The notes under the pieces are model-generated. The model was not told the DNA's origin. It saw nothing but the letters and a program-made list of their open reading frames with translations, and searched no databases. From Artemia franciscana (lineage: Eukaryota; Arthropoda; Branchiopoda; Anostraca; Artemiidae), in the NCBI RefSeq assembly GCF_032884065.1, contig NW_027063679.1, positions 248,001 to 312,000 of the forward strand: a stretch of DNA of 64,000 bases. The letters are read 5' to 3'. This document shows, one piece after another, positions 5,639 through 55,953 of this stretch. Position 1 is the first letter of the stretch. Every line of letters starts with the position of its first letter. The translations under genes and the position numbers were made by a program.

Positions 5639-5865
5639 TTGATCAAGTTTCTTCTGTATATCCATGCACACAATGTGACAAGAGGTATAGACGGAGAGAC
5701 TCCTTGGCAAGGCATGCAAAGTATGAATGTGGTGGGCGACGATTATTTGCTTGTGAGTTTTGCGGTCGGTCGTTTACACAAAGGACGAATGTAAAGAAGC
5801 ACGTGTTTGCTATTCACTTAGCGAAATCTGCTGGAGGAAGTCAGGTAAGAAGGACGATTTTTTAA
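5639..5865 (+). CDS. lola-type alternative 3' exon encoding two zinc fingers
   Basis: The exon follows a strong acceptor (ttgtttgtttgtag, ending 5638) and opens two bases into a codon (G|TT). It encodes two adjacent fingers. Finger 1 is C-x2-C-x12-H-x4-C (YPCTQC, then the YEC of KYECGG); finger 2 is C-x2-C-x12-H-x4-H (FACEFCGRSF, then HVFAIH). A C2HC finger ending in an ECG motif, followed by C2H2, is typical of the alternative 3' exons of longitudinals lacking, a BTB transcriptional regulator of axon guidance. The BTB exon is not in this window, so the gene assignment is by family pattern only. The frame stops at 5863-5865. A consensus donor, cag|gtaaga, falls at 5844/5845, phase 0 and just before the stop, so the exon could also splice onward. 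The open frame continues upstream to 5524, but that part is probably intron. Confidence 0.75.
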
Positions 5866-6675
5866 AATATAAAGAATTTAGCTACACCTTCCATATTGCC
5901 TTTCTGTGACCATATATGGTCACAAAAATGTAGATTACGCTTAGCTCTAGATAAAAGCGAAATTGTTTCGCTGAAAAAGCGTGATTGTTTTTCACAAAGA
6001 GGAAATCGTAAGTTCCTTTCGCTCTAAAATATATGACCAACCGATTTTTGCGGAAATACAGTTAGACCACCTTGGGGTCATATTATACTTTTAGATAAGC
6101 GGGAAAGCTCCCTATAAAAAAGAATTTATCAAAGCCATAGCTTCCTTTATCGAATTCCAACGATGGATGGGGAGGAACCAGGGTTTAGCTCCAAATAAAA
6201 CTATTTATCTATGTAAGACTATAGTCAAACTGCATTTGTCATATGGAGCAGTGGAATAGGTCTATTCTAGTTAGATTAAAAGCCACATTACCCCTCTAAT
6301 AAGGGTTGGGAGGCTGACGTGGCTAATGATTATCTCAGCATACCATCGTGTAGTCAAGACATCCCTGTAGCTAATACAGGGATATCGACCCGTAGAAAAT
6401 TTCAGGTTGTAGGTTGTAGGTTATCAGGTTGTAAATGTCAGGTTGTAGGTTATTGGTCAATGGACAAATAGGCAGCAATTTCAAAGTGTTAAAATCGAGA
6501 ACCGTTTTGGTATTTGCAACTCAATGATGCTTAGAAGTATGCAGCTGCTAATGCCTAAGGATAATATCATCCGTGTTAAATTGCCCGAGACGCAACTGTA
6601 GATTGCCTTAAAGGATAGGAGAGAAGTTGGGCAGGAGCTAGAGCTGCTCCATGAAAGTAACAATATAATTTGCTT
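5866..6675. other. Non-coding stretch with short G/T-rich repeats
   Basis: A simple run of caggttgtaggtt-like words lies at 6404-6455. The rest shows no gene. A minus-strand frame at 6481-6663 has no domain. Confidence 0.3.
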
Positions 6676-7200
6676 TAATAATAATAATAATAATAATTTA
6701 TTCCAGAAAAGGCCCGTGGGCCATAGGAAATTTACACAACAAATTAACTAAATTAAATTAATACTACTTAAAGAAAACGCTCCCGATGTGCCGCTGCAAT
6801 CCTTAGAAATCTTGCTATCCTTTTAATACTCAGGAAATTGGTCTCTTTCATTCTATCTACCATCCATATCACCATCCTATCTACATATAGCACAGGATTT
6901 CGAAGAAAAATCAGAAAACGATTAGTAATAGACACCTATTAGGAAGTAAAAGAGGGGAACATAGTGATACTGAGGCTTTCACTCCCCTCCCCATGTAAAA
7001 TAAACTATGTAAATTATGCCTCAAGGGGTTATATCCTTATAACCTACGGTACACCGTCCCGGAGAAGAAGAAATTTGTCTTTTGGAATTCCCTTTTGATA
7101 TCCCTACTCAATCGCTGGGGTGTCCCTCTCATGAAATTGAAATGGTAACTTTTATCTATACTCAAGAATCCCATGGATATCTAATGTCATAAGATGAATT
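6676..7200 (-). mobile_element. 3' end of a non-LTR retrotransposon with (ATT)n tail
   Basis: Read on the minus strand, the sequence ends in ggcccacgggccttttctgg, then aataaatt and a tail of ATT repeats (aat repeats at 6676-6700 on the + strand). A trinucleotide tail after a short GC-rich motif and AATAAA is usual for Jockey/CR1/I-like elements of invertebrates. Upstream in the element (6960-7160) the minus strand shows short broken coding pieces. The copy is 5' truncated and its clade is uncertain. Confidence 0.5.
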
Positions 7201-9239
7201 CCTCAAAATAGGTGGCGAATTTCTCCTAAAACAAAAATCTTATCAAAACCTTCTAAAATCTAGGTTGGGAGATAAATTTAGGCCAATAAAATTCGAAGAA
7301 ACTTACTATTTGTCTTCTTGTACGTAGAGAAATGAACTAACAAAAATAAAATGAAAAAAAAAGAAAGACAAAGAACACGCTGTATCTCTGCGGTTCTGGT
7401 CCTTTGATATCCTGATGTACCATGACAATTCTGACCAAGGTCTAACCTACGCAGCTTATGAGAATCGACGATTCAAGCTAAATGGCATTTGGCAACCCTG
7501 CTTTCCGATTGTCCAGACTTACGAATAAGTTACTGTCTGTCTGAATTTTGTGTTTGTCTTAATTAGAAGTTTTTTCTTTACGTAAAAGATTATCGTGGAA
7601 AAAGGCATAGAAAGACTTATTAACGAATGAAAAGGCCATTCAGGTAATAATTAAGGTCAGGGGTAAAAAGACAGTTGTGGAATAAGCTATGAATAGGATA
7701 TTTGTGGGTTAATCAGGGTCAAGGGCCCAACATCTTTCCCCTAAGATAAATGGCCGTAACCTGCCACCACGGTTCTGTATCTCAAAGGCTAATACAACAG
7801 CAAACAAAAACACAAAACAGAAAAACACTATCTCCAAAATCTTGAATAAACCTTCCAATCTTCCACTCGTCAATGTCTTGCTGTGGCTACGAATAAGCTA
7901 GGCCCAGGATCCACTGCCATACAATGTGTTTGTAGAACAATCGGTGGCATTTGCTTTATAGCCATCTCAAAGAGGCATGGGACTTTGAAGAAGGGAATCC
8001 GTAAGAATCGCGCCGATTTAATGATGAAACTGACGGGCTTTGCCCGAGGGGATGCCCAAATATACCCAAAAACTTACCATCAAAATGAAAAAAAAACAAA
8101 AAAACAAGAAATAGCAAATTTTATTGGTTCTAGGTTAGGACCTTTTAGGGCCTTGTAGCACGATTAAATAAGAAACTATTTCGCCCTTTGGAATTTACTT
8201 TTGAGAAAAACGAAAAACAGAGTTCGGGTATGTGAAACTATATCAGGTGGCTAGAGGAACTGGCTCCACTAACATCTAAGGAGATTCGACACCATTAAGA
8301 ATCATCCTATCTTGTCTGTTATTGACGTTTTTAGTTTGTCTGGCTAAACTATTTCAAGCTGATTGGGTGGTCTTGTCATAGCTTGTAGAGCTTGGATAAG
8401 CGATCCGAGTAAACGGCAGAAAACTAGAAACCGACATCTACTTTGCTTGAAATCTTCAAGAAACCTTGTAACTTCTCTTGTTTTGTGCTGGAGATAGAGA
8501 TATTCAGTTTTAATGAAACTTATATTAATAGGATGTGTGAATTTTGTTGAATTAAACGGAGCAAAATTGTCTTTTAAATTTCAGGAAAGGATAGTCCCTA
8601 AAAAATTCGTGCATAACTGCTTAGAAAATGCCAAAAATCATCTGAATTTTTTTTTTTTTAAGTCAGTTTCGTAACTCTGTGAGTTTGGTTTGGTGCAACC
8701 CGTTTTCATTGGAAAAGTTTGTCGACACGATCCCATTGTTTTTCAGTCAAATTTCATAGTCAAACGACAAGTTCTTGATAAGTTTTAGTGATAATTATTC
8801 CTCTGGGAGAATTTGCCTAATGGACCGTATGTCTTTGGGACTGGCTGCTGAATTAAAACTTGCAAATTCGTGTTTAAAGTATCGAATCCCTTCAATCTCC
8901 ATCAGTTAAAAAACGTTCACATCTGAATATTAACAAAACTTGACCTATAGCCGAGCTTAAAAGTACTCATGGCTAAAGACACAATGTTTGGTGGTAAGGA
9001 TTGGGGTACAGACGAATGGTTACAATTCTGAGAGATAAATAAATAACATTCTTCTGGGTCCCACTCCATGGGATAGTCGAATGAGGAACAAGTTTTGATA
9101 CCAACACAGGGTAAGAAGGGGGCATGGAGCTTCAGGGTAAAGGTTTAGAAAAATAGGTAGTGACTGGCAATGGGACGAAATATTCCCATGGACCATAATT
9201 AGATAAGGTTATATATTCATAAGGGTATCACAACTGTCG
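7201..9239. other. Non-coding stretch, probably old repeat sequence
   Basis: No gene is recognised. A 91-residue frame at 7883-8158 has no domain. The sequence is less AT-rich than its surroundings, which fits decayed transposon DNA, but no family can be named. Confidence 0.25.
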
Positions 9240-9603
9240 AGGTAAGGCCACTGTCAGCTGTTGCTTGAACGGTCTGGCTATAATCCCTGACCTCCTGCAG
9301 GGTCACTCGTCCCTCCATCAGTTGGGACCAAATGTCTAAGAAAGTCCGCAGGACAGGCCTCAGCTCCTTCCGAGGTTTTCCCGATCCAACCACTACCTTT
9401 CCAAAGCCTGCTGTAGTCCTGTAATTTTTAGCTCCAGATTATCTCTGTTTTACGCCAAGACGACAGAGAACTCCTCTATACCCTTTGAGTTCTCTCTTTT
9501 TGCAGTTGTGGACTAACTCAACTGACTCCCGTAAAGTTTTCTTGTCCTCCCGTGCAGACTGGATTTCCAAATTATGTCTCTTTTTCCTTTTTCTCTTCGT
9601 CAT
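9240..9603 (-). pseudogene. Decayed coding fragment with coiled-coil character
   Basis: On the minus strand a frame opens at an ATG (9603-9601) with a basic start (MTKRKRKK) and a charged heptad-like stretch (LEIQSAREDKKTLRESVELV). With one frame change and one internal stop it continues through RDNLELKITGLQQALE and then, after another shift, LRTFLDIWSQLMEGRVTLQE. This amphipathic, Leu/Glu/Lys-rich pattern kept in pieces over about 360 bp is unlikely in random DNA and points to a broken gene, perhaps the gag-like part of a retroelement. No family is recognised. It lies beside the 333-bp tandem array, which may derive from the same source. Confidence 0.4.
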
Positions 9604-9927
9604 CAAATGGAAACTAGAATCTACTATCTGCTCTTCCCGACTGAATTTTTAGATTGTAGTTTTGTTTTGCAGATCTTTTCTTTCCTTTAGATTATCTTTA
9701 CTTTTGCCAACGGGAATAACAGATCGTCACTGAATTGGAAATCAATTCTCACTTTGGGTTTTTCGTATTGAACTCTAATTTCTTGGACTTAACGAAGAAA
9801 AGCACGCACTTTAAACTTGTGTTTATCCTTCCCTATTACAGAGTGCTTCATCTTGGTAATATAAGGTTCCAAGTTTTTTCAACCTCGGTATTGTCATTGC
9901 CATAAGACATTGTCATGCAACAGTACA

Positions 9928-11245
9928 ACACTTTCGAAGTAATCTTCTGTGTTTGCTTCGAACAGTAGGTTTTAGCTTGTCAATAAGCTTCTCATTGTTA
10001 CGTCTTATTTGTTGCTGCCGCTCGTCTATTCACTGTTATTGTTATTTCTATCTGCTGATAAGACCCTTGTACTGGACCTTCTGTTTCCCAGTGAATAGTG
10101 TCAGTTTTCCTGTGGAAGTTGGGCTCAGGACTTCCCTTGCTGAGTTATTCGGTGGATGTTTTCCTTTCACACTCTGCTGTTTGCTCTCTGGCTCGTAATG
10201 ATGATGATTTGGTTTGACAAGCTGTCATCTTTGTTACGATTATTTCGACACTTTGTTACGACACTTTCGAAGTAATCTTCTGTTTTTGCTTCGAACAGTA
10301 GGTTTTAGCTTGTCAATAAGCTTCTTATTGTTACGTCTTATTTATTGCTGGCGCTCGTCTATTCACTGTTATTGTTATTTCTATCTGCTGATAAGACCCT
10401 TGTGCTGGACCTTCTGTTTCCCAGTGAATAGTATCAGTTTTCCTGTGGAAGTTGGGCTCAGGACTTCCCTTGCTGAGATATTCGGTGGATGTTTTCCTTT
10501 CACACTCTGCTGTTTGCTCTCTGGCTCGTAATGATGATGATTCGGTTTGACAAGCTGTCATCTTTGTTACGATTATTTCGACACTTTGTTACGACACTTT
10601 CGAAGTAATCTTCTGTGTTTGCTTCGAACAGTAGGTTTTAGCTTGTCAATAAGCTTCTCATTGTTACGTCTTATTTATTGCTGCCGCTCGTCTATTCACT
10701 GTTATTGTTATTTCTATCTGCTGATAAGACCCTTGTGCTGGACCTTCTGTTTCCCAGTGAATAGTATCAGTTTTCCTGTGGAAGTTGGGCTCAGGACTTC
10801 CCTTGCTGAGATATTCGGTGGATGTTTTCCTTTCACACTCTGCTGTTTGCTCTCTGGCTCGTAATGATGATGATTCGGTTTGACAAGCTGTCATCTTTGT
10901 TACGACTATTTCGACACTTTGTTACGACACTTTCGAAGTAATCTCCTGTGTTTGCTTCGAACAGTAGGTTTTAGCTTGTCAATAAGCTTCTCATTGTTAC
11001 GTCTTATTTATTGCTGCCGCTCGTCTATTCACTGTTATTGTTATTTCTATCTGCTGATAAGACCCTTGTGCTGGACCTTCTGTTTCCCAGTGAATAGTGT
11101 CAGTTTTCCTGTGGAAGTTGGGCTCAGGACTTCCCTTGCTGAGTTATTCGGTGGATGTTTTCCTTTCACACTCTGCTGTTTGCTCTCTGGCTCGTAATGA
11201 TGATGATTCGGTTTGACAAGCTGTCATCTTTGCTACCATTATTTT
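9928..11245. repeat. Tandem array of a 333-bp unit, about four copies
   Basis: The word acactttcgaagtaatc starts successive units near 9928, 10261, 10594 and 10927, a constant spacing of 333 bp. Copies are almost identical; visible differences include gttgctgccgctcg/attgctggcgctcg and gtgtcag/gtatcag. The period is a multiple of three, so frames repeat: a + strand frame of 105 codons (10214, 10547, 10880) and a minus-strand frame of 76 codons recur. Neither matches a known domain, and both are read as products of the periodicity. Confidence 0.95.
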
Positions 11246-12311
11246 GCATTTGTTTAAACTTGTTTGTTTATGAAACACTCTTGCTTGTTTTTGGAATCCA
11301 TGTCTACCAGATCTTGTACCCCGTCTTGTACAGACTTTAGGAAACCCAAATCTACTGTGAATGATTTGTTAGGAAGAACCATGAATAATTTGTACGGGAT
11401 GTGCCAGCCACTTCATCAGGATTAACTCGGGTTTGTAGTAGATCCGTGTCAAATGGAAGATAATGTTTTATTCATCCGGAACTTCAGATATTAACATTTG
11501 CAAAATTTGGGACCGGGTAGAAAGTCATAGTTTAAAAGAAGGGTTCATTTCAATATTTTGATGCAACCATTAAACCTTCATCACATAGGAGCTTTTAGTG
11601 AAAACAAACGCAAATAAACACTAAAACGAAGGTTTCTCCACCTCAAAGTTGTTTGAACATGCGACATTTCTATAATTTTTCGTTAAAATAAATTTTCATC
11701 AGCTGGGTAACTAATCACTAATCACTAAACTACCCCTGAGGTAACTCACTGAATTCCGTAAATGGCACTTAAAGCTGAATTTTTTGTAACACGTTGAAGT
11801 TTAACGTGGAGTGAGAACGTTCCAGACTAAATGGAAAATCTATATAATAATAAGCATTATTTAAATATTATTTAAAATGTCTATTTATGTTTTTAATTCT
11901 AACCGCTTTTAAGGTTGTCATTTTCTGGTCTTTAAAACGGTAGGACATAAACTCATGAGTGAAGATAAAGTATTAGAGTACACTAATCACTAAACTACCC
12001 CTTAGGTAACTCACTGAATTCCGTAAATAGCACTTAAAGTCGAATTTTTTGTAACACATAGAAGTTTAACGTGGACTGAGAACGTTCCAGACTGAATAAA
12101 AAAGCTATATAATAATAAGCATTATTTAAATATTATTTAAAATGTCTATTCATGTTTTTAATTTTAATCACTATCGTTTTTCATTTAAACCGCTTTGAAG
12201 GTTGTCATTTTCTGGTCTTTAAAATGGTAGGACATGAACTCATGAGTAGACATAACTTATTGGAGTACACTACTCACTAAACTACCTTTTACATAGCTCG
12301 CTGAATTTCGT

Positions 12312-13980
12312 AAATCAAGCAGTTCGTGGTAACGAACTGTAGTAACGACCCAGCTCAATAGTAACCGGAACTCTAAAAAACGGAATTTTGATACCAATAG
12401 TTACATCAAAAGAATCGCATTTTAATGCTGATTTAAATATATAAGTTTCATCAACTTTAGTCTTACCCATAAAATTTACGAGCCTGAAAAAATTTCCCTT
12501 ATTTTAGAAAATAGGGGAAAACGCCCCTTAAAAGTCATAGATTCTTACCGAAAATCACACCGTCAGATTCAGCGTATCAAAGAGAAGTTCTACAGTAGAA
12601 GTTTCAAGCTCCTGTCTACAAAAATGTGGAATTTTATATTTTTTTTTTGCCACAAGACAGATCACGTATGCGTGTTTTTTTTTGTTTTTGTTTTTTTTCA
12701 AGGGTGATCGTATCGACCCAGCGGTCCTAGAATGTCCTCATTAGAATGCGGTCCTCATTCTAACAGAAAATAAAAGTTCTAGTACCCTTTGTAAGTGACC
12801 GAAAAAATTGGAGGGCACATAGGCCCCCTCCCACGCTCTTTTTTTCCAAAGTCATCGGATCAAAATTCTGAGATAGCCGCTTTATTCAGCATAGTCAAAA
12901 AACCCAAAGACTATGTTTTTGGGGACAACTTACTCCCCCACAGTCTCCGTGGGAGGGGCTGCAAGTTACTAACTTTGACCACTGTTGTTTACACATAGTA
13001 ACAGTTATTGGGAAGTATAAAGACACTTTCAGGGGGATTTTTTTGGTTGGGAGGGGGAGGGGGTTATGTGGGGGGAACTTTCCATTGAGGAATTTGTCAT
13101 GGGGGAAGAGAATTTCCATGAAGGGGCGCAGGATTTTTTAGCATTTTTTTAAAGAGCAATGAAAAAATAAATATGAACAAGTTTCTTCAACTGAAAGTAA
13201 TGAGCAGCATTAAAACTTAATACGAACAGAAATTATTACGCATATGAGGGGTCCACCTCCTCTTAATACTCTTTACGCTAAAATAATTTTATTAATATCA
13301 ACTATTTATTCCACAGCCTTTGTGATTCAGGGGTCATTCTTAAGGAATTAGGACAAAATTTTAGCTTTAGTGTAAAGAGCGAGGTATTGACGAGGGGGCG
13401 AACCCCCTTATACACATATTAAAAACATACAGATTTAGAAGTTCGTTACGTAAGTTAATTTGTGAATTACATATATTTTTACTTATGAAAACATTCGTAA
13501 AATTAAAAGTTCTGGTTGCCTTTTTAGTAAACAAAAAATTGGAGGGTAACTAGGCTTACTCCCCCGCTCCTTTTTTTCAAAATCACCCGATCAAAACTAT
13601 TCGAAAGCCATTTAGCCAAAAAAAAATGATGTTCAAATTTTGTTTTAATTATTCATGCGCGGAGAGCCAAAATCAAAACATGTATTAATTCAAAAACGTT
13701 CAGAAATTAATTTAAAAAAACCAGTTTTTTTACTGAAAGTAAGGAGCGACATTAAAACTTAAAACGGATAGAAATTACTCCGTATATGAAAAGGGCTGTT
13801 CCCTCCTCAACGCCCCCTTTTTACGCTGAAGTTTTTTACTGTTTTAAAAAGTAGAGTTGAGAGAAAGAGTCAAACTTTAGCTTAAACAGCGGGGCGTTGA
13901 GGAGGGAACAGCCCCTTTCATATACGCAGTAATTCCTGTCCGTTTTAAGTTTTAATATCGCTCCTTACTTTGAGTTTTAT
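12312..13980. mobile_element. 1.7-kb dispersed repeat inserted in a tandem array (copy A)
   Basis: It shares block order and high identity with 16855-18400: cagttcgtg near the left end, aaaaaacggaattttgat, then ttggagggcac with taggccccct, gacaacttactcccccac-like sequence, gaatttgtcatgggggaag, and ggagagc with aaaaacgttcagaa near the right. It has no long frame with a domain. It interrupts one unit of the surrounding tandem array between gtaaat and cttaaagctg, which marks it as an insertion. The superfamily is unknown. Internal inverted repeats suggest a foldback or other non-autonomous element. Confidence 0.7.
13735..13975. repeat. Imperfect inverted repeat with ~100-bp arms
   Basis: The left arm (aaagtaaggagcgacattaa, then gggctgttccctcctcaacg) recurs in reverse complement (cgttgaggagggaacagccc, then ttaatatcgctccttactt). 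The unpaired centre is about 40 bp. It forms the right end of the 1.7-kb repeat copy A. Such a long hairpin fits a foldback-type end. Confidence 0.8.
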
Positions 13981-14930
13981 TTAATACCTCTTAAAGCTGA
14001 ATTTTTTGTTACACGTAGAAGTTTAACGTGGAGTGAGAACGTTCTAGACTAAATAGAAAAACTATACAATAACAAGTATTATTTAAGATTGTTTAAAATG
14101 TGTATTAACGTTTTTAATTTTAATTGCTATCGTTCTTACTTTAGACCGCTTTTAAGATTGTCATTGTCTGGTCTTTAAAATGGTAGGACATGAACTCATG
14201 AATAAATATAACTTACTGAAGTACACTAATCTTTAAACTACCCCTTACATAACTCACTGAATTCTATAAATAGCACTTAATTTTCGGGACACATGGAAAA
14301 GCTATCTAATAATAAGCATTATTTAAATATTATTTAAAATGTGTAATAACGTTTTTAATTTTAATCACTGTCGTTTTTAATCTTAACCGCTTTGAAGGTT
14401 GTCATTTTCTGGTCTTCAAAATGGTAGGACATGAACTCATGAGTAAAGACAATTTATTAAAGTGCACTAATCTCTAAACTACCCCTTATGTAACTCACTG
14501 AATTCCGCAAATAGTATTTAATTTTCGAGAAAACATGGAAGTTCAACATGAGAACGTTCCAGACTAAATAGAAAAGCTATATAATCATGAGCATTATTTA
14601 AATATTATTTAAAATGTGTGTTAATGACAAAATAGAGAAGCTATATAATAATAAGCATTATTTTAATATTATTTAAAATGTGTATTAAAATTTTTAATAC
14701 CAACCTCCACCGTTTTTAATTTAACCGCTTTGACGTTTGTCACTTTCTGACCTTTAAAATTGTAGAACATGAACTCATGAGTAGACCTACTCACTAAACT
14801 ACCTTTGACAGAATTCACTGAATTTCGTAAATAGCACTTAAAGCTGATGTTTTGACGACACGCGGAAATTTAACGTGGAGTGAGAATGTGTCAGACTAAA
14901 TAGAAAAGCAATATAATAATAAGCATAAAC

Positions 14931-15119
14931 CGAAGAAAAATATAAAGTCTTGAGAATTTTTTTTCTGGAAACTGATATAGAATCTTCTAATGAATTTCCT
15001 TGCAACTCTTCATATTATGTTCGGTACATGCTGTGAAAACTTAAATTCACATCCGTTTTTTCACTGAGATGTGTCACAGGTGTTTCGTCCCCCAAAATAG
15101 TAATTTTCTGTCGCCTTCA
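14931..15119. other. Short non-coding spacer
   Basis: Nothing is recognised between the two tandem-repeat regions. Confidence 0.3.
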
Positions 15120-15625
15120 GGCAGATGGGCTTTAAATTTAACGTTGCTAGGCTGTTGTGGATGTTTTCATTCCGCTTTCTGTTGTTTTCCTCCAACAGGA
15201 AAACAAATTTTCTTGTTATTTTCCTCTGTTGTTTTCCTCCAATAACGATGAATCCAGATTATGCTACCAGTGATAAATCTGGTAGAGAAGTTGTCACTCG
15301 TTACTAAAGTGACCCAAATGTCTTTGGAATTTGTCCAATTGTGTTTTTTTACACTTGAAGTTGTTTTAGATCCCGTCATGGATTGAGTTTACGGAACTCA
15401 TTGTGGATGATTTTGCAGGAACGACCAGATGCAGACAGCTGGACTTTGAATTCCCCCTTGCTAGGCTATTTTGGATGTTTTCATTCTATATGCCTTGCTC
15501 TATGACTCATTATTTTGGATTGTCACTCTCGTTACTGTAGCGATCCGAATATTTTTGACATTTGTCCGATTTTGTTTGTATACAATTAGAATTGTTGTGG
15601 AACCCATCATGGAATCAACCTATTG
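15120..15625. repeat. Two degenerate tandem units related to the 333-bp array
   Basis: A block (ttgctaggctgttgtggatg near 15145; ttgctaggctattttggatg near 15458) occurs twice about 310 bp apart. Both are followed by sequence resembling tcactcgttact and then ttgtggatgattttg. The phrase also resembles the 333-bp array (ttgctgagttattcggtgga), so these look like old relatives of that satellite. Confidence 0.6.
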
Positions 15626-16120
15626 CGGATGATTTTGTAGTAACGACTGATAATAGTTTGCAGGCGATGTGCCTGCAAATTGTTCGTCAACAGTCTTTTG
15701 TCTTTCTAAAGCAGCCATGCCCAATGGACGCTCAATATTGCTATTAGTTGTAGATGATTGCCCAGCTGATTCCCCATTGATAACACTCTAATATGCGCAG
15801 ATACATTTTGGAGAACATGCAAAGGTGCTTGGACTTAAAATGTTCCAGATTAAACAGAAAAGCAACGTCTTTCATGAGTCAATTTTAAATTCTCGATCAT
15901 CCCTAAAGTTCTATGACTATCTATCTTATTTCTGTCCTAAGATGGCTGGATGGATGGATGATAGACTGTCTATCAACAAATGGAAATGATATCATTTTTA
16001 TACGGCTCAGGACAGCTGTGCCTCTCACTCAGACTATCTGTCTTGGCTTTTTCTCCAGTTAGTGATGGATTGATGGAAAATTGATTTTAATTCAAACGGC
16101 GAGTTACCGTTGCCATCTTA
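15626..16120. other. Non-coding stretch with ggat/ggatt words
   Basis: It contains a short run of tggatgga words at 15945-15960. No gene is seen. Confidence 0.3.
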
Positions 16121-16354
<234 letters not shown>

Positions 16355-16358
<4 letters not shown>

Positions 16359-16854
16359 CCAAATGCACAAATTTATATTCTTATTTTGTTGAACAAATTA
16401 TTTACATTAATTTAGTTACACAAACAAATTTACAACCGACGGGGCTTCTTCTGCAAAAAAAAAACTAAGTTCCATTTTTTCATTCATAGTATCAAAAACA
16501 AAATTCCCTATCCTTATTTGGTGGAAATATTATCGGAAATAATGTATTTGGAAAATATGATATTAGATAGAATATTTTTTAGCTCAGTCTTCTGAGGTGT
16601 AATACAGCACTTGCCAAAACTTTTTTGCCGTCTCGGCTTTTTTGCTTTTTCTTTACTCTCTCAGTCCGACATAGCTTTTGAAAAGAAGGGAGATAAATCT
16701 TTCTCGTTTTATCCCAAACTAAGAGTTTTTTTTTTAACTTTTTGTATTTTGAGGAAATATGAGCTCCAGATCTTTCGATTCTGATTGCCCTGTCTTATTG
16801 TGTAGAAAGATGGTCTTAGAAACTTAGGAGGGGACTTTTTCCATCGTAGAGTGA
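16355..16854. other. Non-coding spacer
   Basis: AT-rich and without a recognised feature. It ends where the second 1.7-kb-type repeat begins. Confidence 0.3.
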
Positions 16855-18400
16855 AATATCTTGTCAAACAGTTCGTGATAACGAGCTGTAGTAAGGAGCG
16901 ACCCGGCTCAATAGTAAACGAAAGTCTAAAAAACGGAATTTTGATGCTAATAGATACATCAAAGGAATTGGATTTTTATGTTGATATTAAACATGTAAGT
17001 TTCATCAAAAATAGTCTTACTCATCAAAATTTACGAGCCCGAGAAAATTTGTCTTATTTTGGAAAATAGGGAGAAAACCCCTAAAAGTCATAGAATCTTA
17101 ACGAAAATTACACCAACTCATTCAACGTATCAGAGAACCTTATTGTAGAAGTTTCAAGCTCCTATCTACAAAATGGAACTTGGTATTTTTTGCCAGAAGA
17201 CCGATCACGGGTGCGTGCTTGTTTGTTAGTTTTTTTTCCAGGGATAATCATATTGACCAAGTGGTCCTACTATGTCACGAGTACCTATGTTCTAGTACCC
17301 TTTTTAAGTGACCAAAAATTGGAGGGCACCTAGGCCCCCTCTCACGCTCATTTTTCCCAAAGTCAACGGATCAAAATTTTGAGGTGGCCATTTTGTTCAG
17401 TATAGTCAAAAAACATAAGAACTATGTCTTTGGGAATGACTTGCTTCCCCACAGTCCCCGGGGGAGGGGCTGCAAGTTACAAACTTTGACCAGTGTTTAT
17501 ATACAGTAATGGTTATTGAGAAGTGTACAGACGATTTCAATGGATTTTTTTGGTTGGGGGGTGAGGGCAGAAGGCTACGTGGGAGGATCTTTCCTTGGAG
17601 GAATTTGTCATGGGGGAAGAGAAATTCTATGAAGGGGGTACAAGATTTTCTAGCATTATTTAACAATGAAAAAATAAACATGAAAAAGTTTTTTCAACTG
17701 AAAGTAAGGAGCAGTATTAAAACTTGAAACGAACAGAGATTATTACGCATATGAGGGGTTCATCTCCTCCTAAATACCTCGCTCTTTACGCTAAAGTATT
17801 TTTAGTAATTTTAACTATTTTTTCTATGGCCTTTGTGATTTTTGGGTCACTCTTAAAGAACTGGGACAAAATTTAAGCTTTAGTGTAAAGAGCGAGGTAT
17901 TAACGAGGGGCCAAACCCCTTCATATACATAATACAAATATACAAATACAGAACTTCGTTACTAAAATTAATTCATAAGTTACGTATGTTTTTACTAATA
18001 AAAACATTCGTTATAAATTAAATGTTTTAGTTGCCTTTTTAAGTAAACAAAAAATTGGAGAGTGACTAGGTCTCCTCCCCCACCCCTTTTTTCTTAAAAT
18101 CGCCTGACCAAATCTAAGCGAAAGCCATTTAGCCCAGGAAAAAAATTAATATGCAAATCTTGTTTTAATTATTCATGTGCGGAGAGCAAAAATCAAACAT
18201 TCATTAATTCAAAAACGTTCAGAAAGTAATTTAAAAAAATATGTTTTTTTAGCTGAAAGTAAGGAGCGACATTAAAACTTAAAACGAACTGAAATTACTC
18301 TGTGTATAAAAGGGGCCGCTCTTTACGCTAAAGTTTTTTAAATATTTTATAAAGTAGAATTGAGAGAAAGAGCGTTAGAAAGAACTTTGGCGTAAAGAGC
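16855..18400. mobile_element. 1.5-kb dispersed repeat (copy B)
   Basis: It is homologous along its length to 12312-13980: cagttcgtgataacgag, aaaaaacggaattttgatg, ttggagggcacctaggcccc, gaatttgtcatgggggaag, ggagagcaaaaatcaaac. Within it, 17778-17910 forms an inverted repeat (tacctcgctctttacgctaa against gtgtaaagagcgaggta). The minus-strand frames at 12895-13119 and 17406-17681 are homologous between the copies but show no domain, and mutations between copies do not look constrained. Confidence 0.75.
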
Positions 18401-18630
18401 GTAAAGAACTTTCCTTGAGGCTACTTCCAAAGGCTTTTTTTATAGTACAGTCTATGTATTTTCTGAGCACTGGAGACAGTTTAGCGTTGGTCTTTGCCAA
18501 AATATCCCCTTTGTTTTTGTTATTTACAGATTAAGAATTATCTTAAAATTGTCTTTTATCTATTTGAGTCTTCTTTTTTTTCAGTCCATCTTTTTTTTGT
18601 GCGTGTATATTACTAAACAAATTCTCTACA

Positions 18631-18669
<39 letters not shown>

Positions 18670-19399
18670 GGAGAGGACCTGTCTATGGATCAAAAGACAA
18701 TAGATCACCAAAGCACATCAGAAGTTGAAGGATGATTTTTCCTTTTTTATTCGTTTTTTTTATGTTATCTGTAGGCCCAATTGAGTAATGTTAGCCAGTA
18801 TTTCATGCCCCAGTTGTTAGTTTTATCGAACTTCGCACATCTGATCTATTGTTGTTTCTGCGTATTATGTTGTATTCTTTAAGATAATTGGATGATAATA
18901 TAGTTTGTTTTATGGATGATTATGTTTATTTACGAGCTTTTTTTTAACGAATGTCTTTTGGTAGCTGCCCAAGTTATTAAGACTTGTTTATATTTCAAAA
19001 TTATGTTAAATCGTGTTTGTAAACCTACTCACCTTGAAAATTGTATCGTCAATATAAATCAGGCATTTTCGAAGATCACACTGCTTTTCCGTGACGTATA
19101 AATAACAGTTCAATACAATGCCACTGGGTATGTGACCGAAATAGCGAAAGATTTTTCTTCTTTTTTTTTCACTGTCAAATAAAAGGATTTTATCTATTGA
19201 ACGGTTATTTATACGTCAATATAAATTAACTATATAACACAAGTAACTGCAGGCAGTTACTTTCGAGAGGAGATCTGATGAGTTATAAAGGGTAAGGGGG
19301 GAGGCTTCACAGAATCTTCAAGGTACACCTCTGATTTGAGTTATCTGAAATCGTGTTTGATGCAAGCGTAGCTAAAAATTTGGTAGGTTATTTCATGGT
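18401..19399. other. Non-coding stretch with a poly-T tract
   Basis: A pure T run of about 31 bases lies at 18634-18664. No gene is recognised. A short frame at 18916-19101 has no domain. Confidence 0.35.
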
Positions 19400-19990
19400 T
19401 TTCTTGCACTTTCTGATAGCTCTTTCGGAACTGAATTGTCTCACCAAATTTTTTTATTCTTGTACTCTCTTGTCTGTATGTGTGTATTCTTTGTTTATTT
19501 TTCTTCTTTTTTCGGGAATACATTTTGGTAGTTCCTCACTAAAGATTAAGACCAGCGACTCTCGAGAGCTCGTTGGGAACTGAATTGTCCTGTTACATTT
19601 CTTTGCACTCTTTGTCTGTATGCGTGTGTTGTTTATTTTTCTTTCTTCTTTTGGGAATACATTTTGGTAGTTCCTCACTAAAGATTAAGACCAGCGGCTC
19701 TCGAGAGCTCGTTGGGAACTGAATTGTCCTGCTACGTTTCTTTGCACTCTTTGTCTGTATGCGTGTGTTGTTTATTTTTCTTTCTTCTTTTGGGAATACA
19801 TTTGGTAGTTACTAACTTAAAATTAAGACCAGCGGCTCTCGAGAGATCGTTGGGAACTGAATTGTCCTGCTACATTTCTTTGTACTCTTTGTCTGAATGC
19901 GTGTCTTGTTTGTTTATTTTTCTTTCTTCTTTTAGAAATGCATTATGGTAGTTCCTCCCTTAGGATTAATTTGATCAAAGTTGAGAATAG
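19400..19990. repeat. Tandem array of a 139-bp unit, about four copies
   Basis: The phrase ggaactgaattgtc recurs near 19428, 19574, 19713 and 19852, about 139-146 bp apart. It is accompanied by ctttgtctgtatgcgtgtgt, gggaatacattttggtag and ctctcgagag. The ctctcgagag palindrome is kept in three inter-unit junctions. Confidence 0.92.
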
Positions 19991-20183
19991 TGGCTCTCTA
20001 GAGGGAGACGTGCTTGAGCAAAAAGAGAGACATTTTTAGATTGTTGATTTTATCGTTTTGTTTGTATTTTTGACACACAAACATCCCCCCCCCCTGTGTG
20101 TAGCCCAAGGCTATATAGAACATAAAAAAAAGCAAAAAACCATCTTTTCTGTTCTTTTTCTACATTATTGTCGCTATTCTGAC

Positions 20184-20241
<58 letters not shown>

Positions 20242-20410
20242 CCTAGGGCTATATTATACGATCATGCAGGGACTGGGATGATTTGTCGGAAACGTGAATA
20301 AAACATTAAAAATGAGCATAAAATTAGCTGTCCAGAAATTTTTTTCTTTTTTGTATCTAGCATTTCTTCTTCTGGAGAGCCACTACTCTGTACCAATTAA
20401 TTTTGAAAAT
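19960..20410. repeat. Inverted repeat flanking a (TA)n tract
   Basis: The stretch ending the 139-bp array (gattaatttgatcaaag, then agtggctctctagagg near 20000) recurs in reverse complement near 20360-20405 (cttctggagagccact, then aattaattttgaaaa). A pure TA run occupies 20188-20240 inside. This may be a small MITE that accumulated a microsatellite. Confidence 0.5.
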
Positions 20411-22129
20411 TATAGACTCCTTGTTTAAGCCTTGAGGGTGAGCTTACAACTTCGCTACTTTATTCTTGCAATTAATTCTTAATATAGTGGAGCTTTGATA
20501 AATGGAATCAGATATGTATAATAAGGATTTTTTACCCCCTCCCCCTCCCCCGTCTTTCATTGATGTCTCATCAATTTCTTCCTAATTTTCTTTATAGTCC
20601 TGTTTAATGTATCGTGTATCTGCTATTCTTAAGAATATTTATCTTTCGGTCCCCTCCCTCCGTGGATTTTTACTCGGTGGGGCTTTCTTTTAGGAGTTTA
20701 ACGACCAATTAACTGAACTGTTTTCATCAGTAGATACTGAAATGACTGAATGGATCACATGGACGCCATAAGCGAACTGTGAATAGTGTCTAAAATCAGC
20801 AGGGAATAGATGGTTGTGTGCATTTTCAATAATTCAGGATAATCATTCCAAACGCCGTTTATGCCTGTATATGACATTTTTGAGCTAGAAAAAAAGTAGA
20901 TGTCTTGCTCATGCTGACGCCATGCATTCAAAAAGGCCACTTAAATTCTGCCTGCCTTCGGCACGTTTATATTCCTCTGACGTTTCCAATTGGTACCATA
21001 GCTGCTTGAAAAATTGAAAATGTTGGTACGGTTTGACCTCATGACGTTTGTGCCTTTTGATGGGTCTTTGCCCTCTTTTTTTACCTTGTGACCTTTAATG
21101 AGCTTACTATCTATGTGCTTATCACTTAGCTTTATCTTTCAAGCAAGGGGAAAATATATTAATCTCTAAAAAACTGTAAAACATCGATTTCGTTGTATTA
21201 TGCAGATATATCATGTGCTTTTTAAAATAACTGTTTCTAGTCTGTTGACTGTTTAACAAGAGGGAAGAAAAGGACGAACTAATCTCTCAAGAGTACAAGT
21301 AATAACTGTTCGATCACACAGTTCTGCACCGTTACTATATTTTTTACCATTTCACGGCTAATAGTTTTTTTTTTCTTTCAAGCAACCCATGGACGTGTTA
21401 AATCATATTATGGGTATAAAAACATGGGCATATGCAGTAAATATTCCTCGGGTTGCTACCAGATTTTTTTTATTTTTGTTTTCGTTTTACCTAGATTCGA
21501 ATTAGAAGTAGACACATTTTCGTTCTTTAATACATTTCTCAACGTCTCTTTTTCTAAACCGGAGGGGGCGGGGCATCGCTCCTTCTCGACGGTCATAGTG
21601 TATTTTCCATGGCCTCATTAATATAATTAACTATGGATGGACAATATTATGTTTGTTGCATGTCGCATTTTACTTTCTTGTCTTATTTGTTTCTATCATA
21701 TTTCAAACTAAGCACATATATTTCAACCGTTCGTTTAAGGGTGAAGGATAACATATTGTAAACAAGGAGCGTATCTCTATCCATTTTTCAAATTTTGGAA
21801 ATAAAAGAAAAGGTTGGGGATAAATTAGAACTATAAAATACCTGAGGGTGTATCGAGATGCCAGCCTTAAGCAGGTCTTCCTAAAGACTGTGTGCCTGGG
21901 AGCATTTCTGGTATGTAGTTCACATTTGTTCTTCATCTTGCGCTTGAATCGGGTGGCTTGTTGGTTTAGCAGGGGCGTCCATCCAAGAAAATATGGGGAC
22001 ATCTTTTTTCAAAATCTAGGAGGTTCTTTTTGTTTTTTAATATCTCTTAATGAACATACAAAAGAAAAGTATTTTCCAATAGGATTTGCAAAATGATATA
22101 ATTTTCAAAATCTGGAGCGTAGTGTCTAG
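20411..22129. other. Non-coding stretch, nothing recognised
   Basis: Several short frames on both strands lack domains. An element-like phrase, cgtccatccaagaaaatatg, lies near 21976, but no copy is found in the window. Confidence 0.3.
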
Positions 22130-22214
22130 ATCCGTGCTTCCAGACGTAGGACATGGCAATGTTTTGGTGGATCATGGGCAGGTAGTACACCCTTCGACTG
22201 ACTATACTTTAGAG

Positions 22215-22374
22215 CAATGGTTCCCAATCGATTTTATACCCTGTCCCACCATTTCTAAAATCCTGAGGCCCCCCTCGAGATGTTTGAGTTTTGTTACCCA
22301 AAACATAACGCGTAATCACCTGAAGGAAGTTTTGAAGGAAAAGACCAGTATGTTTTTTCGAGCTGTCCTCTAGC

Positions 22375-22429
<55 letters not shown>

Positions 22430-22901
22430 AACACCTTTCGTACAATGCATAACGCCGTTACAATACTATCATGCATCTCTTTTGCTCTTTAAATGTATAT
22501 GAACGTGACGTCATTTACATGAAAATGTTCTTTTTTTTTAGTTATAGCTCTAGAATATTGTCAGTCGAAGGGTGTAAGTCCTGCCCATGACTCATGAAAA
22601 TATTCACATGCCCCATCGTTGGGTTGTGTGCCCCACATTGAGGATCACGGCTTTGGAGTATTCATTTTGAAAAAAAAAATCGTGTGGATGACGTTAAGTT
22701 CAAATGCATTTAGAGATAAAAAAGATACATGATATTATTGGAATAATTTTATAGATTGTATAAAAGGTGATATATTCAGACAACATTTTTATTAGCATAA
22801 AATATGCCTAGAGAACAGCACCAAAAGACACCAAGTCAATGGCCTTTTAAAATTAGAAATGCCTAGGTGGGGCATGACCCAAAATTGGTTGGGAACCACT
22901 G
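22215..22901. mobile_element. hAT-type non-autonomous element with TIRs and 8-bp target duplication
   Basis: The left end caatggttcccaatc (22215) matches the reverse complement of the right end ggttgggaaccactg (ending 22901) at 13 of 15 bases; CAGTGGTTCCCAACC-like ends are characteristic of hAT (Charlie-like) elements. The flanking octamers are ctttagag (22207-22214) and gtctagag (22902-22909), matching 6 of 8; the right one fits the nTCTAGAn target preference known for this group. A second possible right end lies at about 22650 (gaggatcacgg) with following octamer ctttggag, 7 of 8 with the left. Two nested or overlapping copies are therefore likely. There is no transposase. Confidence 0.75.
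22379..22427. repeat. Poly-T tract, about 49 bases
   Basis: An uninterrupted T run inside the hAT-type element. It could be the tail of a reverse-strand retroposed insertion or a slippage-expanded tract. Confidence 0.95.
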
Positions 22902-22909
22902 GTCTAGAG

Positions 22910-24189
22910 CGAATAATTGGCCTTCCCATTCCCGCATCTTTTTCTATTTACACTCCTGATTTTAACGTTTTCAGAACGTCAACCTGTAGTCTGGAGTTGA
23001 CTGGTTGGTCAGATAGAAAACTTGAAAACTTGGATCGAAAATAATAATGAGGATCGCTTATATTTAGTTAATTTTTGCCTTTTGGGGCGTTTGAACGACG
23101 TACTGTCCCTCTTTGCTCTGCCTTTCTCTTTCTAGGCCTCATTCAACGATCCAAGTTTCGTCTCGACTTTGTCTACACTAATATCGTCTAAACAAATCAG
23201 ATAGCTTTCACATCGCTGCAATAGCTCTTGACATCCTTTCAGCTAATTATTTTTTTGGCGATCGATGAACATTATTGAGACAAGTTTGGCACAAACCTTC
23301 GCATTTTAAAGTTTTTCTTCTAAATCTTGTGGGCAATGGTCTTCTTAATGTGAATCAGGTGAACACTCATTCTTCGATCAGGGTTCAAGAATTCGCGCTG
23401 CTTTTAACCAAACTTCTATCTCATGACATTGAGGGATGATCTGATTTTCGTTCGTTGGTGGTTTCCGAGACATTTACTCCACCTCTTGCGCTGTGAATAT
23501 GACATTTAAACTGCGCCAAAAGTGTCCTATACAACGCAAAAGTCATCGAAGGTCGTTTCTTAAGTTTGAAACTAACTTTTTTGTGTTCGCTGCTCTAGAA
23601 TTTTTTCACTTGACAATGTAATATTTTTACTAAACAAGTGCCGTCGAACAGGATTTTTCAAAAATCTTAAGATGTAGTTTAATATAATTTATTTGAAGGA
23701 GTAATAAGATTAGTTTTAATTTATTACTTAAACAATAGAACACAAAATAGGTTAACCTAGTTGCACACCAATTTAGTTTCATGGAACGCATTCCTAATCG
23801 TTACTCTTCCAATCGTTTGCACATCAAAAGGTCTTCATCTAGTTATTTTGCATCGTTTTAAAATGACAAACTGTTCCCTCGCAAATACATATGATGTCCT
23901 TGTGATTACCAGGACATCGTGTTCATATCCTTGATTACCTTGTATTCATAACAATTTTTTCAAGCGATACCCTGCTACAAATTAGCCTAATGGATTTAGT
24001 GGCTTCAATAAGGTGAGAGGCAAGGGGTTCTGTGTCCTCTAAATTTTTGCCCCGTCCCCATGACTTGGGAAAAACTTTTTGTGGTATTTTCTTTGAAGTT
24101 GAATTTTTACAGAGAAAATTGGAAAAAAGACAAATTATTCGTTCCTCTAGATATTCGCCCTTCTCCCTCTACATTTACTTAGTAATAAA
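22910..24189. other. Non-coding stretch with one small hairpin
   Basis: A short perfect stem, gatgtcct/aggacatc, lies at about 23893-23920. No gene or repeat family is recognised. Confidence 0.3.
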
Positions 24190-25393
24190 ATAGCGGTTTT
24201 GGGAAGCGTAGAGGATGTGTCGACCAAATTTTCTTTCTTAGGTTAATAATTGAGAAGTACATGAGTTATCATTTTGGTCCTGAGTTTTACAGATTATGAG
24301 CAAGCGTTCCATTCTGTTGATAGAAGAGCTTTAGCAAAGGTTTTTTTCTTGTATGATATACCTGACAAACAATAAAATGATTAGTGCTTTGTACGAGAAT
24401 GACACTTCTGAGGTTAGCAGCTGGTTTCGTAATAAATCAGGCGTTAAGCAGGGTTGTGTTTTATCCCCCCTTATATGGATCATTTTGATGGACTTTGTCT
24501 TAAGGAGCTTAGGAAAGGCAATGGGAGACCGTGGAATCAAATTAGGAGGAAGAAACTCCTGGAGTTTATATTATGCTGATGATTTAAGCATCCCAGAGGA
24601 AAGTGTGAGCAAAATGAATGAACTTTTAGAGGTTCTGCGGGTTCAGGGTGCTAGAATGAGTTTGAAAATTAATGCTAAGAAGACTAAGTCGCTAAGGCTA
24701 GTAATAATTAAAGATGAAAAGGTGACGTTGGATAATGAAAAGATTGCTCTAGTGAACAGCTTCAATTACCTTGGTAGTATTATTAGTAGAGATGTTGGGA
24801 GTTTTGAAAATGTTAAAAGTGGAATAGCCAACAGGCTCAGGGTGTGTTTTTTCACAGTTGATAAGAGTTTAGAAGAATAGGGAGAGAAGTTTGCAAATCA
24901 AGATTAGAATATTTGAAGATTCGAACCAGTGATGACAGTGGTCAAATAGGTCTCTGAAGCATGGGTGCTCAGAAAAGCGAAAGAAGATTTACTAGATGTT
25001 TTCCAGAGAAATTATACACGGTTTTTTTTTTGTTACCCGGCTGACTGACCGTATTTCAAACACTAAGCTGTATGAAAAGTGTGGTTTAATCCCGCTTTCT
25101 AATGCTATAATGAGAGAAAGGTTGAAGTGACTTGGGCACTTTCTGTGGATGAATGATGACAGATTGCCAAAGTTTGTCGCTTTCCGACCAACCGTCTCGG
25201 GCTAAAAGGAAAGCAGTTCGTCCATGGTTGGGGCTGGAGGATGCCGTAAGGAAAGATTTAACGGAAATGGGAACTTCCTGGGAAGGTAAAAAGACGGAGG
25301 CTTTGAATAGACTAGGGTGGAGAAGGAGCGTGCGTAGCTGTGTTGGCCTCAAGTGGCTTGATGCTGCGGTGAACTGTTGTTAGTAGTAGTAGT
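24190..25393 (+). mobile_element. 5'-truncated LINE (RTE-like), copy 1, with TAG-repeat tail
   Basis: It encodes part of a reverse transcriptase. The thumb-side motif GVKQGCVLSPLIW and the catalytic YADD (frame at 24353-24880) are intact, followed by the KTKSLR and NYLGSII motifs. It continues with frameshifts through a C-terminal conserved tail (RLGWRRSV, near 25305-25340) and ends in tagtagtagtagt at 25379-25393. The endonuclease and the fingers of the polymerase are missing. The element is related to 57555-59395 and 46095-46312. Several stops and frameshifts make it non-functional. The clade is uncertain (RTE-like by motif wording). Confidence 0.8.
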
Positions 25394-25789
25394 TTCAAAT
25401 TTTTTTTGACGATTGCAGCCAATTCCTTCGTGTGTAGCTGTTAATAAATTTTTATCTTTGAATTTTTGCCGCTTGTGGTAAGTGGAACAGCACACAGGAA
25501 AATAGCTCATCAGTCTAGGAACCAGTCACTTGACCTGGGAAAACTAAGTTTTGACTTTCTATGTTTCTTCTTCTTCTTTTGTTCTTTCTCCTAGAAAAAA
25601 AAATTTCAAATTGAATCTTTTTCTTTCTTTTTTTTAGAGTCGCGTCAACCGTTCCTCCACGTGTATCATTACATTGTATGATAGATGCATTTCAAATATT
25701 CCATCGATATTTAGTTTTACCACTTGTCTGCGTCTGAATTACACGCAGTATCTTTTATTTATATTTCTACCTCAAATCTTTTCTTCATA
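25394..25789. other. Non-coding spacer before the decayed zinc-finger exon
   Basis: AT-rich. A stretch near 25640-25700 shows faint likeness to the beginning of the 26.7-kb exon, but too weakly to call. Confidence 0.25.
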
Positions 25790-25960
25790 TTTCATTTGTA
25801 GTAACCATTTTCCCGACAAAAGGGTTATCCATGTATCACTCATATAGCAGGATTTTCCTCCGACAAAAAATTGCGCAAACGCAAAACCGAGTATCAAAGT
25901 TGTGTTATCTCAGCGCGCCTTTAATGTCCATTTACCTATTTATTTGAAAACCGAGGATCA
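25790..25960 (+). pseudogene. Decayed duplicate of the lola-type zinc-finger exon
   Basis: This stretch aligns to the start of the 26668-27005 exon. Shared words are taaccatttt, gacaaa-gg, atgt-tcactcatat-gca, gattt, ctccga and cgcaaaac. An acceptor-like tttgtag is kept at 25795-25801. In the aligned frame the first finger's two cysteines have become tyrosines (MYHSYSR instead of MCHSCNR), and stops and shifts follow. The part coding for the second finger is mostly deleted, while a tttaatgtccattt block near 25920 still matches the later coding sequence. It is therefore a local duplicate that lost metal-binding residues. The identity is clear by eye but no score was computed. Confidence 0.7.
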
Positions 25961-26667
25961 AGTTTTGGCATAAGAAAAACATTCTGTGAAAAATGAAGGT
26001 GGTGCCAATTTCGGGGGGGGAACGTTTTCCTCTTTAGTCTTTTTTGTCCCCCCTCTCTCTCCCTAAAATAGGGGGGGGGATCTTGGCATTTTCATTGAAA
26101 ATTTACCTTTTTCGGTCCTTTGACTGAAAAAAAGCTTTAAAAAAATTGTCCTGCCTCCCTAGTTTTGAAAACGCATTGCTCCCTTCCCTACTTTTTCGTG
26201 AATTTGCACCTATTGAAAAAAAATCTCTGTAATTTATGTAATTTGTGTTACTCACGGTTGTTGTTAAGCGCATGATATCCCAGCACGTGATATATGTCAA
26301 TATTGCCACGAGTTAACTTTGGGACTGAGCATCGGGTATGTGTTTTAAGAAAAAGACTCAGAGAAAAAATTGCTGGTGCTTGTTGAAGGGTGGAATTCTC
26401 CTTCCCTGGATCCTATTCCTGACTCTTCCTTGATTTGTAAAAATACGTTTTTTATGTTCTCATTTTTTTAATACCTCTTTTTTGCTATATTCATTAAAAA
26501 ACTAAAATTACAAAATGCCCCTTCCCCCCATAAACTACATTTTGCCCCTCTCTGTGTTTTTTTGAATTGGTACCACTTGAAAAAATTTGCTCTGTTTTTT
26601 TTCTTTTCTTTTTTTTTTTACTTGCCTTGTTTGTCAGAATGTATCAAACATGTTCCTTTAATTTCAG
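25961..26667. other. Non-coding stretch with G/C homopolymer runs
   Basis: Contains runs of G or C (for example near 26016, 26050 and 26075) and a T/C-rich tract before the acceptor of the next exon. Confidence 0.3.
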
Positions 26668-27005
26668 TTGTTGCAACCATTTTACAGACAAATGGATTCT
26701 CAATGTGTCACTCATGTAACAGAGGATTTCACTCCGATGAAGAATTGATGAAACACAAAACGGAGTGTGAGTTAGAAAAGCGATTTCCTTGCCCGAATTG
26801 TACTCGTCGTTATAAGAGGAAGCCTGCTTTAATGTTTCATTTGAAATTTGAGTGTGGTGGAATTAAATTATTTCATTGCCCACACTGTCCGTATCAAGCT
26901 TCACGGCGAACTACACTCAGAAGACACATTAGTACACGACATAATATAAACTTAGACATTTTTGGAAATGAAATCAAGGAAGAAAAAGTGGTGGTTGATG
27001 AATGA
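26668..27005 (+). CDS. lola-type alternative 3' terminal exon encoding three zinc fingers
   Basis: The exon follows tttaatttcag (ending 26667) and begins two bases into a codon (G|TT), the same phase as the exon at 5639. It encodes three fingers: FSMCHSCNRGFH ending KTEC; FPCPNCTRRY ending KFECGG; FHCPHCPYQA ending HISTRH. The first two end in Cys (C2HC) and the last is C2H2. The last two, with ECG between them, match the paired-finger pattern of longitudinals lacking alternative exons; the extra N-terminal finger looks like an internal duplication of the C2HC type. The reading frame ends at a TGA (27003-27005) after an acidic tail, so this is probably a terminal exon. By family knowledge the product would be a nuclear BTB DNA-binding isoform. 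The common 5' exons are not in the window. Confidence 0.8.
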
Positions 27006-55879: not shown

Positions 55880-55953
55880 AACCGCCCGTAAGGGACTTGA
55901 ACCCTTGACCCGAGGATTTAAAGTCTCACGCTCTACCAACTGAGCTAATAACT
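55880..55953 (-). pseudogene. tRNA-like sequence (tRNA-Lys-like, degenerate)
   Basis: The minus strand has a perfect D arm (gctcagttggtagagc) and a perfect T arm (aagggttcaagtccctt), with Lys-tRNA-like wording between. The anticodon position reads TTA rather than TTT or CTT, the anticodon stem has mismatches, and the two acceptor strands do not pair (aagttat against acgggcg). It is probably a tRNA pseudogene or the head of a SINE that retains internal pol III promoter boxes. Confidence 0.6.

What the first reader, a model, noticed from the sequence alone, without database searches (positions are those of the whole stretch)
5639..27005. Two phase-matched lola-type zinc-finger exons 21 kb apart
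Seen: exons at 5639 and 26668 each follow a good acceptor, each begin G|TT, and each encode a C2HC finger, an ECG motif, then a C2H2 finger. Known: longitudinals lacking attaches many alternative 3' zinc-finger exons to one BTB exon, which requires a common phase. Inference: this is part of such an alternative-exon locus, in an animal with very large spacing between alternatives caused by transposon growth.
Basis: partly seen in the sequence, partly recalled or inferred. Interest (0 to 1): 0.75.

Follow-up and report, generated by a model that had tools for sequence, protein, structure and literature searches.

The report
Extra lola-type gene in brine shrimp
The two zinc-finger exons look like alternative endings of an overlooked brine-shrimp relative of the fly gene lola, whose shared first exons lie just outside the window and fit both endings, so it is a good new example of a known gene design.

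Summary
At 5639 and 26668 two + strand exons each follow a YAG acceptor, start TT in phase 1 and encode the lola-type C2HC(ECG)+C2H2 finger pair; the second has an extra finger. The window lies on a 681-kb scaffold (C1093) of a genome matching the published female Artemia franciscana assembly. Joined to either zinc-finger exon they give open proteins (327 or 364 aa); joining the two zinc-finger exons to each other breaks the frame. The annotated proteins of this gene found here stop before both. The main lola array is elsewhere (C4): 49 finger-pair frames on one strand, median 2.4 kb apart, 46 of 48 scored in phase 1. So the window holds a small lola paralogue, one of about seven such BTB loci, with wide spacing partly filled by repeats. 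Use of the exons in RNA is untested. New member of a known kind.

The parts
5639..5865 (+). Alternative zinc-finger exon z1 (phase 1 start, [G]|TT; stop TAA 5863-5865; alternative end at donor CAG|GTAAGA after 5844)
5665..5730 (+). z1 C2HC finger ending in the YECG motif
5752..5817 (+). z1 C2H2 finger
26668..27005 (+). Alternative zinc-finger exon z2 (phase 1 start, [G]|TT; stop TGA 27003-27005)
26790..26855 (+). z2 C2HC finger ending in the FECG motif
26877..26942 (+). z2 C2H2 finger
5866..26660 (.). Interval between z1 and z2; at least 8088 of 20795 bases have another copy in the 285 kb compared (window included). The common exons lie OUTSIDE the window on the same scaffold and strand: exon a C1093:227392(ATG)-227568, exon b 230850-231375, exon c 241737-241790 (window starts at C1093:248001).

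Best explanation
z1 and z2 are mutually exclusive alternative 3' exons of one lola-type BTB zinc-finger gene on scaffold C1093 of Artemia franciscana. Common exons a and b encode a lola-like BTB domain and an acidic linker; a 54-bp common exon c follows. Donors b and c both end in phase 1 on a G, so splicing to z1 or to z2 gives a split Val codon (G|TT) and one of two transcription factors (327 or 364 aa; 309 or 346 aa if c is skipped) that share the BTB part but differ in DNA-binding fingers. The gene is a paralogue of the large lola array on C4. Shown: exon positions, frames, phases, domains, parallel layout of the paralogues read. Inferred: that both exons are really spliced, that the choice is regulated, that the BTB part oligomerises as in fly lola, and that the products are DNA-binding regulators.
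For: BTB halves at C1093:227464-227577 and 230841-231023, + strand, upstream of both ZF exons; BTB in the joined protein, 81.5 bits. Donor of exon b AAG|GTAATA in phase 1; both joins open to a stop; joining z1 to z2 is out of frame with stops. Exon c (TTTCTAG|GG...CAAG|GTAAGT) is phase 1-1 and is in the annotated proteins. Paralogues share the layout: exon b donor in phase 1 in 5 of 5 loci read (C1093 gene 1; C4 minus, C4 plus, C9:3.1 Mb, C1093 gene 2; for C9:3.1 Mb and C1093 gene 2 the donor was picked by eye, without an annotated protein). C4 ZF acceptors are in phase 1 in 46 of 48 frames scored and in 8 of 8 annotated tails that map to the fetched stretch, of 11 tails tested. Isoform 2 aligns over 93-98% of its length with several annotated Artemia lola-like isoforms at 35-37% identity; of the 120 proteins listed, by my count 90 bear lola as their first name; insect lola hits aligned over the BTB part alone are 52-63% identical.
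Against: No transcript data could be searched. Annotated proteins of this gene (P0001, P0002 = QYM36_019410) end before the window, although that annotation used RNA-Seq and Iso-Seq (PMC11492255, passages). No protein holding z2 was found at 62-196 aa or among the 120 best of 982 at 190-605 aa, nor one holding z1 at 170-541 aa. z1 has a strong donor that may make it internal. The donors of exons a and b match the consensus at 7 of 9 places, as do 7 or more places in 181 sites of the same 84.8 kb. In the joined z2 protein no zinc-finger family reaches its Pfam cut-off. No orthologue in another species was available to test coding constraint on z1 and z2.
Confidence: 0.75

Rival explanations
1. 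Relic exons: z1 and z2 were alternative endings of this gene once but are no longer spliced; the gene now makes only short BTB proteins ending at exon c or at a small exon near C1093:245093.
For: Annotated proteins end that way: P0002 reads on past exon c to a stop, P0001 ends in GY, for which the better of 2 candidate acceptors is at 245093. The C11 partial copy has lost the exon b donor and has a frameshift, so decay happens in this family.
Against: Both ZF exons keep an open frame, all zinc ligands, an acceptor and the right phase, which decay would erode.
Confidence: 0.15
2. z1 and z2 are successive exons of a single transcript.
For: z1 has a strong donor, CAG|GTAAGA, 8 of 9 consensus positions; only 19 such sites occur on the + strand of 84.8 kb.
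Against: z1 leaves in phase 0 and z2 enters in phase 1; the joined product hits stops and loses all z2 fingers.
Confidence: 0.03
3. z1 and z2 are endings supplied in trans to another BTB transcript, for example the C4 lola common exons, as in fly lola and mod(mdg4) trans-splicing.
For: The loci read share the phase-1 junction, so products would be in frame; trans-splicing of lola is described in fly (PMC4667647 and PMC1947980, passages).
Against: A BTB gene in cis, same strand, lies directly upstream. Annotated C4 isoforms use C4 endings in the 8 cases mapped.
Confidence: 0.05
4. Independent zinc-finger genes unrelated to the upstream BTB gene.
For: No annotated protein found links them; the distances from exon c are 12 and 33 kb. 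I made no full gene prediction between 231 and 254 kb, only a list of + strand open frames.
Against: Phase, finger type and order copy the C4 locus, and the upstream donors fit.
Confidence: 0.02

Closest known systems
lola (longitudinals lacking), insects
   Same: Common BTB exons joined to alternative 3' exons that mostly carry C2HC/C2H2 fingers; at least 20 isoforms in fly, 17 of them with fingers (PMC1947980 and PMC11426971, passages). Insect lola hits aligned over the BTB part are 52-63% identical.
   Different: Only two ZF endings found instead of about 17; short protein; a paralogue beside a much larger array in the same genome.
Artemia lola-like genes on C4 (minus and plus strands), annotated among others as longitudinals lacking-like and tramtrack-like isoforms
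   Same: Same exon a/b/c/ZF layout and phase-1 junction; BTB 62-63% identical.
   Different: 49 finger-pair frames within 143 kb on the minus copy, a second head-to-head copy on the plus strand; the window gene has 2 and wider spacing.
mod(mdg4)
   Same: One BTB part with many alternative 3' ends, partly by trans-splicing (PMC4667647, passages).
   Different: Its variable ends mostly carry FLYWCH domains; none matched in z1, z2 or isoform 2.

Membership tests
lola-type BTB zinc-finger gene | N-terminal BTB domain of the lola kind in common exons | tested here: met
   PF00651 81.5 bits over residues 25-117; 90 of the 120 best hits first named lola by my count; BTB tree places it with Artemia C4 and C9 genes (91/90, below the star threshold) and these with Daphnia (98/94), but without non-lola outgroups
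lola-type BTB zinc-finger gene | Two or more 3' exons sharing the acceptor phase of the common donor | tested here: met
   Donors b and c phase 1, z1 and z2 phase 1, open joins
lola-type BTB zinc-finger gene | C2HC finger followed by C2H2 finger in the variable exon | tested here: met
   Pfam finger scores fall just under cut-off in the joined z2 protein
lola-type BTB zinc-finger gene | Transcripts joining the same common exon to each alternative exon | not testable with these tools
   No RNA reads; annotated proteins found for this gene do not include z1 or z2
lola itself (one-to-one orthologue) | The main lola locus of the genome | tested here: not met
   Large array with BTB exons is on C4; the window gene is a paralogue
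lola | Trans-splicing of variable exons | not testable with these tools
   needs allele-specific or long reads
mod(mdg4) | FLYWCH domain in the variable exons | tested here: not met
   no FLYWCH match in Pfam scans

The most novel reading that the evidence does not exclude
Artemia has broken the single-locus lola system into a dispersed set of about seven BTB loci whose junction phase is kept the same, so that endings such as z1 and z2 could be used by several BTB parts (in trans, or in mixed TTK-type oligomers), giving a combinatorial set of regulators far larger than the isoform list of any one locus.
Probability: 0.07. Interest if true: 0.65.

Novelty: new member of a known kind. Interest (0 to 1): 0.35.

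Why it matters
If true, the current annotation of this brine-shrimp gene lacks its DNA-binding ends, and the lola design (one BTB part, many zinc-finger ends) has been copied to several loci in a crustacean rather than staying in one. The family, from a 49-frame array to a two-exon locus and a copy with a lost splice donor, is a natural series for asking how alternative-exon arrays grow, shrink and keep a common phase.

Tried and rejected
Rejected: z1 and z2 as successive exons (out of frame). Rejected: the window as part of the main lola array on C4 (different scaffold; C1093 is 681 kb). Rejected: C11:88-93 kb as a full second copy. In the stretches read it is nearly identical to exons a and b and their flanks, but exon b has a 1-base deletion and its donor GT reads AT, and exon c, z1 and z2 gave no near-identical match on C11. 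Ignored as chance: a weak Pfam match of z2 to Nairovirus NSm below its cut-off. Led nowhere: PDB comparison of z2 gave other zinc-finger proteins, and that of the BTB part other BTB proteins, among them fly CG6765 (8rc6) (the best 60 of each shown). The tree of finger pairs has only 51 columns for 62 rows and many weak forks; it places z1 and z2 apart, which fits two old exons but proves nothing. Papers: no paper held both Artemia and longitudinals lacking; lola with Artemia gave 9 listings, none of whose titles or abstract beginnings concern this; a barnacle paper says lola genes are expanded in barnacle genomes (PMC11331182, passages). The assembly paper does not mention BTB or zinc finger in its main text. 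The other paper listings used were. A genome-wide copy count of the reverse-transcriptase fragment did not complete, nor was a DNA search with the z1 region.

Full report
WHAT IS THERE. The two exons are coding-type sequence. z1 (5639-5865) and z2 (26668-27005) follow YAG acceptors, begin TT and are read in phase 1, so that a G from the upstream exon makes a Val codon. A strict finger pattern finds only these two exons in six frames of the window and nothing in 20 shuffles; a wider one also hits two other places. z2 carries three fingers, not two. z1 has a strong donor 18 bases before its stop codon. Taken singly the acceptors are not rare: 293 and 127 YAG sites on the + strand of 84.8 kb score as high as those of z1 and z2; the case rests on fingers, frame, phase and context together.

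WHICH ANIMAL. The window is C1093:248001-312000 of a genome of 1,270,528,402 bases in 6468 contigs. The published female Artemia franciscana assembly has 1,270,721,445 bp in 6486 scaffolds and 34.71% GC (PMC11492255, passages). The protein library gives Artemia franciscana proteins on contigs of 681242, 63039847, 50985676 and 48312810 bases, the lengths of C1093, C4, C9 and C11. I take this as the source; the small difference in size and contig number is unexplained.

THE PREDICTED BTB EXON. A BTB scan of the genome gave two half-domain matches on C1093, + strand, at 227464-227577 and 230841-231023. The DNA shows exon a with ATG 227392 to donor CAT|GTAAGA after 227568 and exon b 230850-231375 with donor AAG|GTAATA, phase 1, last base G. 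A 54-bp exon c at 241737-241790 enters and leaves in phase 1. Exons a, b, c plus z1 give 327 aa (read to the stop), plus z2 364 aa; without c, 309 and 346 aa. Splicing z1 to z2 is out of frame.

THE SAME LAYOUT ELSEWHERE. On C4 the BTB exons lie at 34372501-34372668 and 34368249-34368410 on the minus strand, followed by 49 finger-pair open frames down to 34214826 (the profile used was built from finger pairs of this same stretch). For 48 of the 49 a YAG acceptor could be scored in the open stretch; the best-scoring one is in phase 1 in 46 and phase 2 in 2. The remaining frame is phase 1 according to an annotated protein. Eleven annotated tails were tested; 8 map to the fetched C4 stretch and all 8 are phase 1; the other 3 belong to the plus-strand copy, whose endings were not in that stretch. 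A second BTB pair lies head to head on the plus strand at 34404729 and 34407514, with finger hits at 34.44-34.49 Mb. Further pairs: C9:38602733/38608311 and C9:38711033/38716607 (equal scores; finger hits at 38.741-38.747 Mb), C9:3109411/3116649 (no finger hits seen near it), and a second gene on C1093, minus strand, with exon a at 376045, exon b at 370645 and a finger exon at 345803. These seven, with the window gene counted and C11 left out, are the best-scoring pairs; other BTB genes with split domains score lower, and the cut is mine. Exon b ends in phase 1 in the 5 of 5 loci whose DNA I read; for C9:3.1 Mb and C1093 gene 2 the donor was picked by eye. A partial copy of the window gene on C11 has a frameshift and a lost exon b donor, and exon c, z1 and z2 gave no near-identical match there.

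RELATIONSHIP. The 346-aa isoform found 982 proteins; of the 120 listed, the first three are this gene and its C11 copy, and by my count 90 bear lola as their first name; the others are called tramtrack-, broad-, bric-a-brac- or zinc-finger/ZBTB-like (most of these Artemia C4 or C9 isoforms), hypothetical, unnamed, uncharacterized or nothing. In a tree of 21 BTB rows, the gene and 20 that I chose from that list, it groups with the Artemia C4 and C9 genes (91/90, not at the star threshold), these with Daphnia (98/94), and the 14 insect rows form the other side. No BTB proteins chosen as non-lola outgroups were included and the root is a midpoint, so the tree shows an expansion within the sampled set, not its outer limit.

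SPACING. z1 and z2 are 21 kb apart; the C4 frames are 2.4 kb apart at the median and 12 kb at most. At least 8088 of the 20795 bases between z1 and z2 have another copy in 285 kb compared, the window itself included, among them a 1.7-kb element found many times in the C4 stretch. So repeat growth is a fair part of the reason for the local spacing, but wide spacing is not a property of all such loci in this animal.

WHAT IS AGAINST. The annotated proteins of this gene, 254 and 284 aa, share a, b and c but end before the window. The annotation used RNA-Seq and Iso-Seq (PMC11492255, passages), so z1 and z2 may be rare, stage-specific or unused. Searches for annotated proteins holding z1 or z2 found none in the length ranges covered. 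In the joined z2 protein the finger families score 23.2 and 24.7 bits, just under their cut-offs of 25.2 and 27.

VERDICT. The locus is a small lola paralogue of a known kind. Its use in RNA is the open point.

Noticed in passing
window 39891-47863, + strand: Ribosomal protein L22 gene: exons at about 39891-40175, 45379-45500 and 47758-47863 (PF01776: third exon 67 bits, first exon 19.7 bits, under the cut-off of 23.6; middle exon read by eye; last exon not located). It lies between the two lola-type genes of C1093, which point towards each other.
   Followed up: partly
C1093:345803-345982, 370645-370836, 376045-376158, - strand: A second lola-type BTB gene on the same scaffold in opposite orientation, with a phase-1 exon b donor and a phase-1 finger exon as read by eye.
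   Followed up: partly
C4:34214826-34357582 (-) and about 34404729-34489037 (+): Two head-to-head lola-like loci; the minus copy has 49 finger-pair frames, more than the 20 isoforms described for fly lola (PMC11426971, passages).
   Followed up: partly
C11:87901-88300 and 92201-93100 (L044, L045): Partial near-identical copy of exons a and b with a 1-base deletion and the exon b donor GT changed to AT; the annotated QYM36_001579 fits it. Recent duplicate or partial haplotype copy, not decided.
   Followed up: partly
window 9924-11244: Four tandem copies of a 333-bp unit, 98% matches.
   Followed up: no
window 24335-24880 and 58565-58882: Reverse-transcriptase fragment (PF00078, 57 bits) and a second open frame similar to it by eye.
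   Followed up: no
window 55889-55948 (-) and 59481-59553 (+): tRNA-like matches in Rfam but not in ARAGORN; possibly tRNA-derived repeats.
   Followed up: no
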